DNA from: Sphingomonas alba
GTDB lineage: Bacteria; Pseudomonadota; Alphaproteobacteria; Sphingomonadales; Sphingomonadaceae
Assembly: GCF_023516555.1 (NCBI RefSeq)
Contig: NZ_JAMGBD010000001.1
Coordinates: 186,001 to 250,000, forward strand
Direction: 5' to 3'
Length of the DNA: 64,000 bases
Shown: piece after piece, positions 4,201-61,110 of the stretch
How the letters are laid out: every line of letters begins with the position of its first letter
Numbering within the stretch: the stretch's first letter is position 1
Made by a program: the position numbers and the translations under genes
The notes under the pieces: model-generated
Told to the model about the DNA's origin: nothing
The model's input: only the letters and a program-made list of their open reading frames with translations
Databases searched by the model: none

Positions 4201-6309
4201 TTATCCCGACTGGTTAACAGGGCGCGCTGCGACCTCGAAATCGTTCGCCGGTTCCCCATTCACCAAACGTCCGAATGCGTCGTCATATCCAGCTTCGATC
4301 GCCCGGGCGAAGCGCGGCGCGTCGAACAGGGGCGAGCTGTCAATTGTCGCCCTGAGCTTGCCGCGGATAGCGGCGAGTTGCTCGGGATTGCGCGCCAGGT
4401 TCAGGGCCATCGCTTCGTAATCCGTTTCGCTCGTCGTGATCAGTTCAGCCATCCCGGCGGCCGTGAGTATGATCGCCGCCACGCGTGCCGCGAAACCGTC
4501 TCCCAGCTTCGTTACCAGCGGTAGCCCCGCCGCCAGCGCATCGCTCGCCGTCGTGTGAGCATTGTACGCAAATGTGTCGAGGAACAGGTCGGCCAGTGCC
4601 TGACGGTCAAGATGGTCCGGAACCGACGCGGGCGGCGCGAAAACGAGGCGGTCGGCGGATACGCCGCGTCGCTCGGCCTGGACCCTAAGGTTACGCTCAA
4701 CGTCCGGCGTTGGTGCAAGGAGCCAAAGGACGCTGCCGTCGACGGCCTTCAGCAGCCGCATCCAGATGTCGAACTCTGGTGGTCCGATTTTGTAGCTGTT
4801 GTTGAAGCAACAGAAGACAAAGCCATCTTCCGGAAGCCCAGCCTCGGTGCGGGTTGGTACTTGCTTCGCAAGGCTGCGGCGGCCGTTGGGCTGGTAGCAA
4901 TCCGGCAGCAGAATGAGCTTTTCCGAATAGGCGTCCCGCCATTGGGGCGGGCAGACGATCGGGTCGGCGATCATGTAATCCATGAACGGCGCGCCGGTGG
5001 TGCCTGGATAGCCGAGAAAGGTCATCTGCAATGGCGCGGCGCGATGGGCAAAAATGCCGAGACGGGAGCCCTCTGTGTAGCCTTGCAGGTCGACGGCGAT
5101 GTCGATGCCGGCCTTGCGGGAGGCAGCGGCGATGGCCGCGTCCGACAGGGTGGAGACGTCGGTGAAGCGGTCGAATGCCGCCTCCAGCCGGCGCCGCATC
5201 GGATTGTCCTTCGGCGGCCCGTAAGAGAAGGCATGGAGTTCGAACCTGTCACGGTCATGGGCCTCGAACAGTCCGACGGCGAGCTGCATCACCGCATGCT
5301 CGGTATAGTCGAAAGAGAAATAGCCGATCTTGAGCCGCTCGGGCCGGGTCGTGGGCGCGGCAAGCGGTGGCGCGACCTTCGCGAAGGTCTGGGCAGCGAA
5401 ACGCCGGGAGCGCTCCAGGTGCCGCATCGGCGCATCTTCGAGGCCGAGGACTGCGAAGGGCGGGATGATGCCTCCCTCAACGCCGAGCCGGGGCAGCAGC
5501 TTCATGTCCGCCTCCAGCGCATCCCAATCACATTTGCGGGCCAGGAAATGCATACGCTGGGCCCGGGCGAGGGCATTGCCGGGATCGACCTCCAGCGCCC
5601 GGCTGAAGCTGGCGATGGCTTCGTCCCGGCGGCGCAGGCTGGCGAGGGCGACGCCGAGGTTGAGATGCGCCAGCGCAAAGCCGGGCCTCAAGGCGGTGGC
5701 CTGTTTCAGGCACTGCACTGCCTGTTCCATCTGGCCGAGAGTCACGAGCAAGGTACCAAGATTGTACCAGGCTTCGACGTATGTCGGCTGCAGCTCCACG
5801 GCCTTGCGGTGACAGGCGATGGCGTCGTCGTTGCGGCCCAGGTCGCGATAGGCGTTGCCAAGATTGCTGATCGCCTGTGCGGAGGCGGGATCCTGCTGCA
5901 TGGCGCGGTGGAAATCCGCCACCGCATCCTGCGCGCGGCGGAGGTCGAGCAAGGCGATGCCGCGATTATTGTAGCAATCGGGAAACGTCGGCTGCGCCTC
6001 CAGCGCCTGGTCGAACCAGCCCAGTGCCTCTTCCTGGCGGCCGCAGTTGCGGCAGACGAGGCCCATGTTGTGCAGCGCCTGCGAGTCCGCGGAATTAAGG
6101 CGCAGGGCCTCGCTCAGCGGCTGTTCGGCCTCGGCGAACTTGCCGAGATGGACCAGCGCCGCGCCCAGGTTGTTCTGCGCCGGCGCCAGGTCCGGGTCGA
6201 GCTCGACCGCGCGGCGAAAGCAGGCCGCCGCCTCCTCGAACTTGCCGGCACTGACCATGCCAAGGCCAATACCGTTCCAATCCACGGCTTTCGCCGACCG
6301 CTCGCTCAT
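4201..6309 (-). CDS. TPR protein with O-GlcNAc-transferase-like C-terminal domain
   Basis: A 702-residue protein with two parts. Residues 1 to about 300 are at least seven tetratricopeptide repeats, with repeated signatures such as AQNNLGAALVHLGKFAEAEQ and AWYNLGTLLVTLGQMEQAVQ. Residues about 330-690 match the GT41 (SPINDLY/OGT) domain: LKIGYFSFDYTEHAV, VDLQGYTEGSR, TFLGYPGTTGAPFMDYMIAD and FAYNAHTTASDALAAGLPLV. Enzymes of this family move a sugar from a nucleotide sugar to Ser/Thr on proteins. In bacteria the targets are often adhesins or flagellins; none is encoded nearby. The ATG start (MSERSAKAVDW) gives a complete first repeat. Confidence 0.9.
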   Translation of the reverse strand: MSERSAKAVDWNGIGLGMVSAGKFEEAAACFRRAVELDPDLAPAQNNLGAALVHLGKFAEAEQPLSEALRLNSADSQALHNMGLVCRNCGRQEEALGWFDQALEAQPTFPDCYNNRGIALLDLRRAQDAVADFHRAMQQDPASAQAISNLGNAYRDLGRNDDAIACHRKAVELQPTYVEAWYNLGTLLVTLGQMEQAVQCLKQATALRPGFALAHLNLGVALASLRRRDEAIASFSRALEVDPGNALARAQRMHFLARKCDWDALEADMKLLPRLGVEGGIIPPFAVLGLEDAPMRHLERSRRFAAQTFAKVAPPLAAPTTRPERLKIGYFSFDYTEHAVMQLAVGLFEAHDRDRFELHAFSYGPPKDNPMRRRLEAAFDRFTDVSTLSDAAIAAASRKAGIDIAVDLQGYTEGSRLGIFAHRAAPLQMTFLGYPGTTGAPFMDYMIADPIVCPPQWRDAYSEKLILLPDCYQPNGRRSLAKQVPTRTEAGLPEDGFVFCCFNNSYKIGPPEFDIWMRLLKAVDGSVLWLLAPTPDVERNLRVQAERRGVSADRLVFAPPASVPDHLDRQALADLFLDTFAYNAHTTASDALAAGLPLVTKLGDGFAARVAAIILTAAGMAELITTSETDYEAMALNLARNPEQLAAIRGKLRATIDSSPLFDAPRFARAIEAGYDDAFGRLVNGEPANDFEVAARPVNQSG

Positions 6310-6381
6310 GGGGCGAGCCTTAGCAGCGGTTATCGCCGCCGCTAGAGGCCAAAAGTCGCAAGAGCTGCAGCGAAATCGCCC

Positions 6382-6612
6382 TTAGGCCACCGGCTCCGCG
6401 GCGGCGGCAGCCTCGGCGGCTTTCGCCGCGTCGCTGGCCTTGGCGACTTCATGCGCGACCCGCATCTTCTCCGTGCGCTCGGCGCGCTCGGCCATCACCG
6501 TCCAGGCAGATTCGGCGCGCAGGCAGCGCTCACGGACGTTGGCGAGCGTCGCCTTGTCCGCATCGGCGCGGGCTTCGGCGGCGCGCTGGAGGTAGATGTC
6601 ACGGTCTTTCAT
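6382..6612 (-). CDS. small alanine-rich hypothetical protein
   Basis: A 76-residue charged, alanine-rich protein predicted to be a single long helix or coiled coil (RAAEARADADKATLANVRER region), ending in an Ala/Glu tail. There is no signal peptide. I recall similar short proteins in sphingomonads but know of no assigned function. It lies upstream of and co-directional with the GT41-like gene, 72 bases away. Confidence 0.65.
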   Translation of the reverse strand: MKDRDIYLQRAAEARADADKATLANVRERCLRAESAWTVMAERAERTEKMRVAHEVAKASDAAKAAEAAAAAEPVA

Positions 6613-6634
6613 TCAACATTCCTTCCCGCCGGGG

Positions 6635-6701
6635 CCGTCACGGGAGTGAATCCCGTGACGTCAGTCCTGACCGCTCGCGCGGCAGGCTGGCCGGCTTTCG
6701 C
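6635..6701. repeat. dispersed palindromic repeat, copy 1
   Basis: About 67 bases headed by a perfect palindrome, GTCACGGGA and TCCCGTGAC around the loop GTGAA, and ending in GGCCGGCTTTCGC. A second copy of about 64 bases is at 39957-40020, and the tail alone recurs near 10760-10776. No transposase is present. The stem differs between copies by a matched base-pair insertion. Confidence 0.7.
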
Positions 6702-6719
6702 GAGCTCTTCGCGCCGCGC

Positions 6720-6740
6720 CGCCGGCGTTTCACGCCGGCG
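6720..6740 (-). terminator. hairpin downstream of the cold-shock gene
   Basis: A perfect 8-bp GC-rich inverted repeat, CGCCGGCG, with a TTTCA loop, 17 bases beyond the cold-shock stop codon on the minus strand. No T run follows, so it is only a terminator-like structure. Confidence 0.35.
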
Positions 6741-6757
6741 TCGCTGCGCTCGGTTGC

Positions 6758-6967
6758 TTAGCTGGCGTCCTGAAGGTTGACGGCGCGAGCCTTGCCACGC
6801 TGGTCGGTCTCGACGTCGTAGGTGACCTTCTGGTTGTTGCTCAGCGTGCGGAGGCCCGCGCGCTCGACATCGGTAATGTGGACGAAGCTGTCGGTGCCGC
6901 CATCATCCGGCGAGATGAAGCCGTAGCCCTTGGTTTCGTTGAAGAATTTTACGGTGCCTGTCGGCAT
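6758..6967 (-). CDS. cold-shock domain protein
   Basis: A 69-residue single cold-shock domain. TGTVKFFNETKGYGFISPDDG carries the RNP1 motif (KGYGFI) and DSFVHITDVERAG the RNP2-like motif (FVHI). Proteins of this family bind single-stranded nucleic acid and melt RNA structure. The start at 6967 (MPTGTVKFF) fits the family and is preceded by AAAGGAAAA about 6 bases upstream; the frame runs six codons further. Cold-shock genes usually have a long regulated 5' untranslated region; the 215 bases upstream could hold one, but I see no clear cold box. Confidence 0.93.
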   Translation of the reverse strand: MPTGTVKFFNETKGYGFISPDDGGTDSFVHITDVERAGLRTLSNNQKVTYDVETDQRGKARAVNLQDAS

Positions 6968-7182
6968 GGGAGATTTTCCTTTCACTTGCGAGGACCGCCA
7001 ATCGGTCCCCGGGCGCTAGGAGTAGCGAAGCGAAGGAATGAGGAGCCGCAAAGCGCCTGTAGACCGTCAATTTGCGACTAGTAGCTGCATCCCATGTAGG
7101 GCGTCCGACCCGAAATAGCGAATCCGGGGCTTTTCTCCCGACCCGCCAATGCTGCTAAGCTCGGCGGAAAGGGGGCAGGGTC

Positions 7183-7935
7183 ATGGCGCTCAACTTGCGA
7201 CCGGCGCACGGATGGAGGGCATTTGCCGGCGAGGTCGGAGTGATCGTCCTCGGCGTCCTGATCGCTCTGGGTGCACAACAAGCGGCCGAAGCCTTGAACC
7301 AGCGGAGCGAGGCGGCGGAAACCCGGACCGCGCTCACCAACGAGATCGAGGAATCGCTCGGCACCCTGGAGCTGCGGCGTGCGGCCCAGCCGTGCATCGA
7401 CAAGCGCCTGAAGGAACTGCGCGGGCTCGTCGATGAATGGGGCCGCACCGGCAGCTACAAGACGCCGCGCTGGGTCAGCCAGGCGACCTGGTTCGCGATC
7501 GGGACCCAGCGTTTCGACGCCGCGGAATCCGCGGGGCGGCTCGCACTGCTGCCAGCGGAAGAGCAATATCGGCTGGGCTTCATTCACGGCGCGCTGGTCA
7601 ATTATCGGGCGGTCCAGGACCGGGAGAGCGAGGCCTGGGGAAGCCTGAGGATGCTGCAAAGCGGCGCCGACACATTGTCGCCGACCGATCGGACGGCGAT
7701 CCGGCAGGCGCTGCAGGAAGCCTCGACCCTCAATTACTTCATCAAGATCCGGGTGGGCCAGAGCCTGGAGCAGGCGGCCAAATATGGCTGGAAGCCCGAC
7801 ATGCGACGCGCGAAGGACACGATGAGGCTGGCATGGAAGGACGGCAAGTTCGTGCCGTCGGTCTGCCTTCCCATCGACACGCCGCCCGAGGTGGCGAACC
7901 GCCAGGCGAACCAGAGGTATGATCTGCCGGAATAA
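7183..7935 (+). CDS. membrane-anchored hypothetical protein (DUF6090-like N terminus)
   Basis: A 250-residue protein. Residues 12-32 (RAFAGEVGVIVLGVLIALGA) form one transmembrane segment that resembles the start of DUF6090-type proteins, in which a short amphipathic lead and one membrane span precede a helical periplasmic or cytoplasmic domain. The rest is helical (EIEESLGTLELRR and ALQEASTLNYFIKIR regions) with no catalytic motif. It stands alone, divergent from the cold-shock gene. The function is unknown. Confidence 0.75.
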   Translation: MALNLRPAHGWRAFAGEVGVIVLGVLIALGAQQAAEALNQRSEAAETRTALTNEIEESLGTLELRRAAQPCIDKRLKELRGLVDEWGRTGSYKTPRWVSQATWFAIGTQRFDAAESAGRLALLPAEEQYRLGFIHGALVNYRAVQDRESEAWGSLRMLQSGADTLSPTDRTAIRQALQEASTLNYFIKIRVGQSLEQAAKYGWKPDMRRAKDTMRLAWKDGKFVPSVCLPIDTPPEVANRQANQRYDLPE

Positions 7936-8412
7936 GCGAGCTGCCGAGTGCAGGGGAGGGATTGCATAGCAATCGCGAGGCAGCACGAAGAGACAGTGAG
8001 CCTCGGCCAGCCTGCCGCGAAGCGGACCGGACTGACGTCACGAAGTGAGCGGCAGCCATGCGCCAGCATGGCGAGAGCGAGCGGATGTGGCGGGGGCGTT
8101 GTTTCAGCGAAGTTCGCAGCCCGATGCGGCGCGAGGGTAACACCAAACCCTACCAAAACGGGGGGTTGTTACCTGCGTTACCTTTGCTGCTGCGGGCGAC
8201 ACGGTGACACCCCAAGCCTGTGAAAACGGGGGGTCGTCAACTTCGTCAACTTTGCCCCGTCGCGGGGCGGGTGGTTGAGGCCCGGATTCGACAATCTGAA
8301 AGAGCAAAGGGACGCTGGCACAGGGGACGCCCTGTAGGACAGCGAAATCGTGTGGTTGGGGCGGCGGGTCGGGGAATTGAGTGAGCTGTCGTCGTAATTC
8401 CCGTAATTTCTT
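7936..8412. other. intergenic region at the downstream edge of the ubiquitin-like island
   Basis: This 477-base stretch has no convincing gene. It holds a diverged tandem repeat (8136-8187 and 8203-8255) and, at 8393-8423, three spaced CGTAATT copies of which the last runs into the 3' end of the membrane-protein gene. Base composition falls from GC-rich to AT-richer at about 8380, which marks the left limit of the island. Confidence 0.6.
8136..8255. repeat. diverged tandem repeat, two units of 52-53 bases
   Basis: Unit 1 (8136-8187) starts GGTAACACC and unit 2 (8203-8255) starts GGTGACACC. Both contain AAAACGGGGGGT and end in CTTTGC or ACTTTGC. Inside each unit a short word is doubled: GTTACCTGCGTTACC in unit 1 and GTCAACTTCGTCAAC in unit 2. 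They look like two members of an intergenic repeat family rather than a recent duplication. Confidence 0.7.
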
Positions 8413-10590: not shown

Positions 10591-10784
10591 ACTCAGACGT
10601 AAGAAGGGGCTGATTTTTTGAGACGTGCCTCGTCGCCCTCCATCAAGAGGCGTTCGGCACAGGCCCACTATAGCGTCTCAATTTCCGACGCGCGAGTATG
10701 CAAGAACGACTGTCACGCGAGTGAATTGTGGAGTCAGTCGAGTTCACCTTGCGCTGACCCGCCGGCCGGCTTTCGCGTCCCCGC

Positions 10785-10818
10785 CACACAAAGGAAAAGG
10801 GGGCCGCGAACGGCCCCC
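10785..10818 (-). terminator. Rho-independent terminator
   Basis: On the minus strand GGGGGCC and GGCCCCC flank a short loop (10799-10818) and are followed at once by TTTTCCTTT. It lies about 20 bases downstream of the hypothetical gene ending at 10839, so it terminates that gene and insulates the ubiquitin-like operon from it. Confidence 0.8.
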
Positions 10819-39865: not shown

Positions 39866-39940
39866 TGGTGGGCCCGGCAGGACTCGAACCTACAACCAAG
39901 CCGTTATGAGCGGCCAGCTCTACCATTGAGCTACAGGCCC
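39866..39940 (-). tRNA. tRNA with CAU anticodon, probably tRNA-Ile2
   Basis: A 75-nt cloverleaf on the minus strand with a 7-bp acceptor stem (GGGCCTG with CGGGCCC), D arm GCTC/GAGC, anticodon stem GGCCG/CGGCT, loop CTCATAA, T stem GTAGG/CCTGC and an encoded CCA. CAU could mean Met or Ile. The acceptor and variable-loop pattern (TGGTT) is nearer to tRNA-Ile(CAU), read as Ile after lysidine modification, than to elongator Met. Confidence 0.85.
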
Positions 39941-39956
39941 CACCAACCTGGCCAAG

Positions 39957-40020
39957 CCGTCACGGAGTAAATCCGTGACGTCGATCGACACCGCATCGCG
40001 GGTCGTCGGCCGGCTTTCGC
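39957..40020. repeat. dispersed palindromic repeat, copy 2
   Basis: It begins with the palindrome GTCACGGA and TCCGTGAC around GTAAA and ends in GGCCGGCTTTCGC, aligning along its length with 6635-6701. It lies between two tRNA genes. Confidence 0.7.
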
Positions 40021-40028
40021 CTTTTCTG

Positions 40029-40066
40029 GCGCAAGCATTGGATTGTTCCAATCCATGCGCTTGCGC
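40029..40066. repeat. imperfect hairpin between two tRNA genes
   Basis: GCGCAAGC-ATTGGATTG and CAATCCAT-GCGCTTGCGC pair around TTC with two small bulges. It follows the dispersed repeat directly and may be part of the same element. There is no T run. Confidence 0.5.
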
Positions 40067-40079
40067 TTCGGGCTCAAGC

Positions 40080-40158
<79 letters not shown>

Positions 40159-61013: not shown

Positions 61014-61110
61014 CCCCCGGAAGTCGGCGGACGGCGCTGTCGCCAACCTGGTCAGATCCGGAAGGAAGCAGCCACAACGATTTCGTGCCGGGTCGTCGGC
61101 TTCCACCTTC
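61014..61110 (+). ncRNA. ffs: signal recognition particle RNA (4.5S, small bacterial type)
   Basis: The diagnostic tip GGTCAGATCCGGAAGGAAGCAGCC spans 61050-61073, and the arms around it pair: GGAAG at 61019-61023 with CTTCC at 61100-61104, and inner GC segments as well. The RNA binds Ffh and targets nascent membrane proteins. The exact ends are approximate. It sits 55 bases upstream of dnaX, a location seen in other bacteria. Confidence 0.85.

What the first reader, a model, noticed from the sequence alone, without database searches (positions are those of the whole stretch)
6635..6701. Dispersed palindromic repeat with a compensatory stem change
Copy 1 (6635-6701) and copy 2 (39957-40020) align along their length. 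The head palindrome is longer by one G on the left arm and one C on the right arm in copy 1 (GTCACGGGA/TCCCGTGAC against GTCACGGA/TCCGTGAC), so the extra pair is matched on both sides. The shared tail GGCCGGCTTTCGC appears alone near 10760. Stem maintenance in two copies suggests a structured element (REP-like or small RNA-like).
Basis: seen in the sequence. Interest (0 to 1): 0.5.

Follow-up and report, generated by a model that had tools for sequence, protein, structure and literature searches.

The report
Structured repeat right after gene ends
The two palindromes are fragments of a roughly 125-base, three-stem repeat that sits directly after the last codon of many genes in this bacterial family, probably folds in the RNA copy, and matched no family in the RNA library searched.

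Summary
The window holds three good copies (6634-6759 minus, 7938-8053 plus, 39956-40075 minus); the "tail alone" at 10760 belongs to a decayed fourth. A covariance model finds 29 copies in this genome and copies in 56 of 61 genomes of the genus. Changes on both sides that keep pairing occur in 30 of 38 pairs (own genome) and 35 of 38 (other genomes).

The striking property is position. About half or more of the copies start within a few bases of the stop codon of an upstream gene, in that gene's orientation; profiled hosts (groEL, lepA, ychF, purH, ctaD, ahcY, rpmG) are complete. One window copy follows a tRNA gene. At ychF, two close relatives lack it. No Rfam family matched, the RAYT-type transposase domain is absent here (3 of 61 in the genus), and U-tracts rarely follow.

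I read it as a dispersed 3'-end RNA element, REP-like in placement but different in build, acting on mRNA 3'-end stability and/or ribosome release. Function is inferred; the test for RNA over DNA is fragile.

The parts
6634..6759 (-). Copy 1, whole element (model positions 1-124), directly after a cold-shock-domain gene
   Evidence: CM R1, 115.3 bits, E 1.1e-22; folds with z -4.71. In the training set of R1, so it matches by construction.
6637..6659 (-).
   Evidence: helix 6
6660..6691 (-). Copy 1, hairpin B (GTCAGTCC..GGCTGGC on the plus strand) with a variable tip
   Evidence: helix 5
6704..6757 (-).
   Evidence: alignment; helices 1-4
6758..6760 (-). Stop codon (TAA) of the cold-shock-domain ORF, overlapping the first two model positions
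   Evidence: L034, +2; ORF read at window 6761-7015 minus, Pfam PF00313 E 1.4e-20
7933..7935 (+). Stop codon (TAA) of the 258-codon ORF upstream of copy 3, two bases before the element; no Pfam match for this ORF
7938..8053 (+). Copy 3 with an enlarged hairpin A; by eye it runs on to about 8092
   Evidence: CM R1 76.3 bits, E 1.7e-14; not in the training set; sequence; fold z only -1.59, 12 of 200 shuffles as good
39956..40075 (-). Copy 2, whole element, between two tRNA genes of the same strand
   Evidence: CM R1 89.4 bits, E 3e-17; z -5.96. In the training set of R1.
40082..40158 (-). tRNA-Pro (TGG), ending 6 bases before copy 2
39866..39940 (-). tRNA-Met (CAT), beginning 15 bases after copy 2
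10709..10786 (-).
   Evidence: CM 18.2 bits, E 0.027; local score 39 to copy 1 against null maximum 29; fold z -0.04

Best explanation
It is a dispersed, ~124-nt, three-stem element carried directly behind the 3' ends of genes in Sphingomonadaceae and read in the gene's direction. Shown: copies, covarying structure, position and orientation, presence/absence between close relatives. Inferred: it is transcribed as the first part of the 3' UTR (or of a tRNA precursor) and works as folded RNA. The most likely job is to block 3'-to-5' decay of the upstream transcript and/or to meet the ribosome as it terminates, as REP sequences within 15 nt of a stop codon are reported to do in E. coli. It is dispensable at any one gene and is gained or lost, by a route that does not depend on a RAYT transposase.
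For: 29 copies in the own genome at E < 1e-6; 56 of 61 genus genomes, 0-35 copies each. Covariation: 30 of 38 pairs, 222 double-change cells against 65 shuffled, own genome; 35 of 38, 909 against 264, other genomes; 31 of 38, 195 against 56, in a set mostly behind lepA. Position: a sense ORF stop within -6..+4 nt of the element start in 15 of 21 own copies with a qualifying ORF (29 copies) and 52 of 95 in other genomes (105 copies with enough flank); opposite-side control 0 of 16 and 8 of 73. Host genes are native: profile matches run to or nearly to the model end for PurH 510/510, LepA 594/595, L33 56/56, YchF 368/368, GroEL 546/546, CtaD 504/504 (C-terminal pieces of at most 300 aa, so several score under the whole-protein cut-off). 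Wobble: sense-strand G-U 94 against A-C 43. Terminator-like sites 50-70 nt beyond the element at groEL, ahcY and ctaD would place it inside the 3' UTR. E. coli REP within 15 nt of a stop codon lowers translation (PMC12306157, passages, citing Liang 2015).
Against: No transcript, stability or expression data. The wobble excess is not robust: in the antisense-fitted alignment the totals are equal (112 to 102), and the excess returns (96 sense G-U to 55) only if one pair column is left out after the fact. That column is C-A in sense, a register-shifted pair the sense model lacks, and it could be a true G-U pair on the antisense strand. Hairpin A shows no skew (13 to 11). Transcription-linked C-to-T mutation could give the same skew. 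The copy after tRNA-Pro has no stop codon, so a purely translational role cannot cover all copies. Many species lack it at the same gene: at ychF 5 of 30 fetched loci have it, at lepA 10 of 30. Elements at the same gene in different species are no more alike than random pairs (lepA median 0.778, random 0.788). Terminator-like sites downstream are overall no commoner than on the other strand.
Confidence: 0.55

Rival explanations
1. A non-autonomous mobile DNA element (MITE- or REP-like) that inserts at gene 3' ends. The stems are needed as single-stranded DNA or cruciform by an unidentified enzyme, and the RNA structure is a by-product.
For: Copy number 0-35 within one genus. Between ychF and, by eye, the same convergent neighbour two close relatives (G014, 96% identical over 150 aa; G371, 95%) lack it, while G000 and G296 have it in place. 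Tail-to-tail and head-to-tail pairs occur. A decayed copy exists. The strand test is fragile.
Against: No Y1 transposase in the own genome and only 3 of 61 in the genus; other transposase families were not searched. No long terminal inverted repeat: the ends share only GCC/GGC. Strong sense orientation and near-zero distance to genes are unusual for plain insertion. Covariation is kept in a mostly lepA set that spans genera.
Confidence: 0.3
2. An intrinsic transcription terminator family.
For: It lies at gene 3' ends and ends in a strong hairpin. At lepA of G160 the last hairpin is followed by CTTTTT (L202).
Against: TTTT within 12 nt after the element in only 4 of 139 copies (background 33 of 2740). 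Terminator-like sites within 200 nt downstream 17 of 136, against 22 of 136 on the other strand. None found at 6300-8400, where shuffles give 1.8.
Confidence: 0.07
3. A source of 3'-UTR-derived small RNAs that act in trans; dispersal reflects a shared processing signal.
For: Modular stems with conserved linkers (GCCGGCC, GAGAGA-NGGC) and variable tips.
Against: No expression data; tips vary and I saw no shared seed, without a systematic search; no Rfam match.
Confidence: 0.06
4. Chance similarity or ordinary GC-rich palindromes.
For: None found.
Against: E-values to 5e-23 in the own genome, 0 of 24 genomes of other families in the order, and the shuffle and slide controls. Model hits in the 16 training copies are by construction; the other genomes were not in training.
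Confidence: 0.01

Closest known systems
REP / BIME sequences (GTAG- and CGTC-tagged superfamilies; PMC3733652, passages and one section read)
   Same: Dispersed palindromic extragenic repeats. In Pseudomonas entomophila and S. wittichii most repeats between convergent genes lie under 20 bp from both gene ends. GTAG REP ends often supply a TAG stop codon.
   Different: REPs are described as 20-40 bp tagged palindromes, often tied to transposase genes. This element is ~124 nt, directional, has three stem-loops, no unpaired GTAG/CGTC tag and no Y1 transposase in the genome.
E. coli REP acting on translation (Liang et al. 2015, seen only as cited in PMC12306157, passages)
   Same: Placed within 15 nt after a stop codon; proposed effect on ribosome release and mRNA stability.
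   Different: Functional analogy only; nothing here was tested experimentally, and one copy follows a tRNA gene.
MITEs and larger intergenic repeats such as enterobacterial RU-1/2/3 (127, 168, 103 bp; abstract of PMC2759123 in search listing); ERIC and BOX recalled
   Same: Size class, intergenic dispersal.
   Different: No long terminal inverted repeats seen; sense position behind genes; different taxa.

Membership tests
RAYT-associated REP | Short (20-40 bp) palindrome with an unpaired GTAG or CGTC tag | tested here: not met
   Unit of 124 model positions with 38 pairs; the CGTC letters are paired with GACG and change with their partners
RAYT-associated REP | Y1/RAYT transposase in the genome | tested here: not met
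   PF01797: 0 matches in the own genome, control genomes ring in 5 of 14; 3 of 61 in the genus
RAYT-associated REP | Dispersed, extragenic, near gene 3' ends | tested here: met
   29 own copies; stop-codon distances
MITE | Terminal inverted repeats of ten or more base pairs | tested here: not met
   By eye on the alignment and consensus structure: the stems are local; the two ends share only GCC/GGC
MITE | Target-site duplication at filled sites against an empty site | tested here: inconclusive
   ychF filled and empty sites compared by eye; no clear duplication, one locus only
Intrinsic terminator | Stem directly followed by a U-tract | tested here: not met
   TTTT within 12 nt in 4 of 139
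Known Rfam family | Match at or above a family's gathering score | tested here: not met
   Window: only 2 tRNAs and SRP RNA. Eight loci at E up to 1: one weak cspA thermoregulator hit outside the element, below gathering. Other copies were not scanned.
Integron attC site | GTTRRRY and RYYYAAC core sites (motifs recalled) | tested here: not met
   Both motifs in 2 of 139 copies, sense strand with 20 nt flanks
3'-UTR RNA element | Present in the mature or precursor transcript | not testable with these tools
   No transcript data held

The most novel reading that the evidence does not exclude
A mobile 3' UTR: a non-coding element that spreads by homing to the 3' ends of transcribed genes, tRNA genes included, in the sense direction and almost exactly at the last codon, through a transcript-linked route (such as reverse transcription or an R-loop) and not through a RAYT-type transposase, and is then kept as an RNA that changes the output of the gene it tags.
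Probability: 0.13. Interest if true: 0.8.

Novelty: new variant of a known kind. Interest (0 to 1): 0.52.

Why it matters
Dispersed palindromic repeats are common, but most are short and symmetric, so their strand and job are hard to read. This one is long, directional and strongly covarying, and it often starts almost exactly where the gene ends. That gives a natural set of filled and empty sites behind the same housekeeping genes (lepA, ychF) in close relatives, on which the question 'do such repeats act as RNA on the upstream gene?' can be tested directly. If it is mobile, the way it finds gene ends without a RAYT would need explaining.

Tried and rejected
RAYT-driven REP: rejected. Rfam family: none. 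Intrinsic terminator: rejected as a general role. Integron attC: rejected. Element supplies the stop codon itself: not general. TRA lies at -1..+2 in 29 of 30 copies whose gene stops at +2, but in only 9 of 59 copies whose gene stops elsewhere within 12 nt, and in 10 of 30 copies without an ORF stop nearby. Preference for ends of transcription units (convergent neighbours): crude gene calls gave 12 convergent, 13 co-directional and 4 none in the own genome, and 42/51/8 in other genomes; inconclusive. Vertical descent by sequence identity: inconclusive, because identity ignores gaps. Rows dropped: L028 (one of 17 blastn places, 38 bits) looked like coding sequence and was not used; L009, L010 and L011 were left out of the training alignment because of their long hairpin A, and the model found all three later. 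Papers: searches gave no paper in the listings shown whose title or abstract start describes this element; the library holds only open-licence papers, the lists were capped, and eight searches do not prove absence.

Full report
What is there. A blastn of copy 1 in the window's own genome (2.5 Mb, 3 contigs) gave 12 places at E <= 0.001, and a longer copy gave 17 at E <= 0.01. Read on the opposite strand, the copies share a ~124-nt layout: GCC-NCC-GAGCG, hairpin C with a variable tip, GCG-NGAGAGA-NGGCG, GCCGGCC-AGCC, hairpin B with a variable tip, GGACTGAC, then hairpin A (GTCACG..TTYAC..CGTGAC), GGC.

Structure. RNAalifold on 16 own-genome copies gave 38 pairs, 28 with changes on both sides. 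A model R1 from those 16 rows finds 29 copies in the own genome at E < 1e-6; five further matches have E 0.2-0.85 and are not counted. Of the 29, 16 are the training rows, three more came from the same blastn lists and ten are new. They keep 94.2% of cells paired (shuffles 73.5%), with 30 of 38 pairs doubly changed. In 88 loci from other genomes the model finds 110 matches (107 distinct rows), 94.6% paired, 35 of 38 pairs doubly changed, 909 such cells against 264 in shuffles; partners slid by 1-3 columns give 28-35% paired. These loci were brought in by the same model or by a pattern for hairpin A, and the alignment is fitted to the structure, so paired percentages lean upward; I do not think the number of double changes is explained by that. 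A few loci appear to be the same record under two names (for example L062 and L118, L065 and L099, L116 and L125).

Where it occurs. 34 of 37 genus genomes and 0 of 24 genomes of other families of the order match at E <= 0.001. In a wider draw that includes those 37, 56 of 61 genus genomes match, with 0 to 35 copies. Family-wide, 58 of 298 genomes and 25 of 96 genera match, a lower bound because only 11 candidates per genome were scored. An exact pattern for hairpin A hits 33 stretches of named records; 31 are labelled Sphingomonas, Sphingomicrobium, Sphingosinicella or Sphingomonadales, one 'Alphaproteobacteria bacterium', one a Hyphomicrobium MAG. Sphingomonas caseinilytica, one of these, is filed under Sphingomonadaceae. 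The genome's own name is not known to me.

Position. With ORFs of at least 120 codons ending between -200 and +130 of the element start, the longest such ORF ends within -6..+4 nt in 15 of 21 own copies (29 copies; 8 had no such ORF) and 52 of 95 copies in other genomes (105 of 110 had 500 nt upstream; 10 of these had none). The same count from the element's other end gives 0 of 16 (29 copies) and 8 of 73 (102 copies). With 200 codons: 14 of 17 and 44 of 76, against 0 of 7 and 4 of 43. So a sizeable minority is not placed this way. The ORFs are mechanical, without gene calling. Named host genes are complete: profile matches reach or nearly reach the model end for PurH, LepA, ribosomal protein L33, YchF, GroEL, CtaD, PepO-like and 3-hydroxybutyrate dehydrogenase; AhcY is matched to 416/416 with eight further residues (only C-terminal pieces were given, and several score below the whole-protein cut-off). 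The window copy follows a cold-shock-domain protein. Copy 2 lies between tRNA-Pro and tRNA-Met, 6 and 15 bases away, so the rule is 'after the gene', not strictly 'after a stop codon'. Tail-to-tail copies sit, by eye, behind two convergent genes in G369, and such pairs occur in G005, G007 and G031.

Same gene in other species. Copies follow lepA in several genera. Of 30 lepA loci fetched from the genus, own genome included (53 genomes had a match), 10 have the element at the lepA stop and 2 more behind a lepA 3'-end relic. Of 60 family lepA ends fetched (117 genomes had a match), 8 match at E < 0.001 and one more (L162) looks homologous by eye; in two of the 8 (L177, L185) the match starts about 35 nt after the stop. 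Some of the 60 were chosen because the model had already hit them, so 8 of 60 is not a rate. A set of 24 matches from lepA-bearing loci keeps 92.8% paired with 31 of 38 pairs doubly changed; two follow lepA relics and one (L226, minus strand) is not at a lepA stop. At ychF, 5 of 30 fetched loci, own included, carry it (58 genomes had a match). G014 (96% identical over 150 aa) and G371 (95%) have no element between ychF and what looks, by eye, like the same convergent gene, whereas G000 and G296 do. So the element is gained or lost while ychF stays intact.

RNA or DNA. If the sense RNA is what matters, G-U pairs should exceed A-C mismatches on that strand. Other genomes: 94 to 43; own genome: 26 to 13 (p = 0.05). 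A control model built on reverse complements gives equal totals (112 to 102, read on the antisense strand). One pair column contributes 57 to 6 there; it is a register-shifted C-A (sense) pair that R1 lacks, as checked on the 16 training rows. Without it the count is 55 to 96, which again favours the sense strand (p = 0.001). I left that column out after seeing it, and on the antisense strand it could be a true G-U pair, so this is weak support. Hairpin A alone shows no skew (13 to 11).

Not a terminator, not RAYT. TTTT follows within 12 nt in 4 of 139 copies (background 33 of 2740), and terminator-like sites downstream are no commoner than on the other strand (17 against 22 of 136); at groEL, ahcY and ctaD such a site lies 50-70 nt beyond the element. 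Pfam PF01797 has no match in this genome while 5 of 14 control genomes ring, and 3 of 61 genus genomes have one. Other transposase families were not searched.

How it most likely works. Shown: a folded, directional unit often directly behind genes, kept in structure and varying in presence between species. Inferred: it is transcribed, folds as the ribosome clears the stop codon, blocks 3' exonucleases and possibly slows release, as reported for E. coli REP within 15 nt of a stop codon (PMC12306157, passages). Most convergent-site REPs of S. wittichii also lie under 20 bp from gene ends (PMC3733652, section 15), so the placement has a precedent; the three-stem directional build and the lack of a RAYT do not in what I read. 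How copies arise is unknown.

Noticed in passing
lepA 3' ends in G361, G022, G369, G374, G023, G014, G358, G004; also G090, G086, G126, G088, G136, G134; ychF in G011: Partial copies of the last ~26-145 codons of lepA lie from about 45 nt to about 5 kb downstream of the intact gene, as if integrations had repeatedly replaced and displaced the gene's 3' end. In G369 and G361 the structured element follows the displaced relic, not the present lepA stop.
   Followed up: partly
own genome, e.g. C1:1656016, C1:791484, C2:244547, C2:418006: A second dispersed repeat, TGTCCGCTTTCGACCC and variants: 53 places with up to 2 mismatches against 3 for the reversed pattern. These four lie 3-11 nt after copies of the element.
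   Followed up: partly
L037, just after the element behind rpmG: GGGTTCCCGCTTTCGCGGGAATGACG resembles a CGTC-type REP (recalled consensus), so ordinary REPs may coexist with this element.
   Followed up: no
L052 (C2:608020-608129 minus); L046 (C2:614524-614668 minus): The upstream frame reads into the element: a 530-codon frame ends 93 nt inside it in L052, and a 505-codon frame ends 19 nt inside it in L046.
   Followed up: no
window 7938-8092; L009-L011; L241: Hairpin A is sometimes much enlarged (nested hairpins) instead of the 5-nt TTYAN loop; several lepA copies have a different loop class, CAGG-CCGC-CCTG.
   Followed up: no
L081, L061, L071, L142: Two elements in direct tandem (L081) or tail to tail (L061, L071, L142), 4-18 nt apart.
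   Followed up: partly
L114 (JAICLG010000214.1): One strong copy (108.4 bits) lies in a MAG contig labelled Hyphomicrobium, outside Sphingomonadales; misbinning or transfer.
   Followed up: no
window 61016-61110 plus: Bacterial small SRP RNA (Rfam RF00169, 63.9 bits).
   Followed up: no
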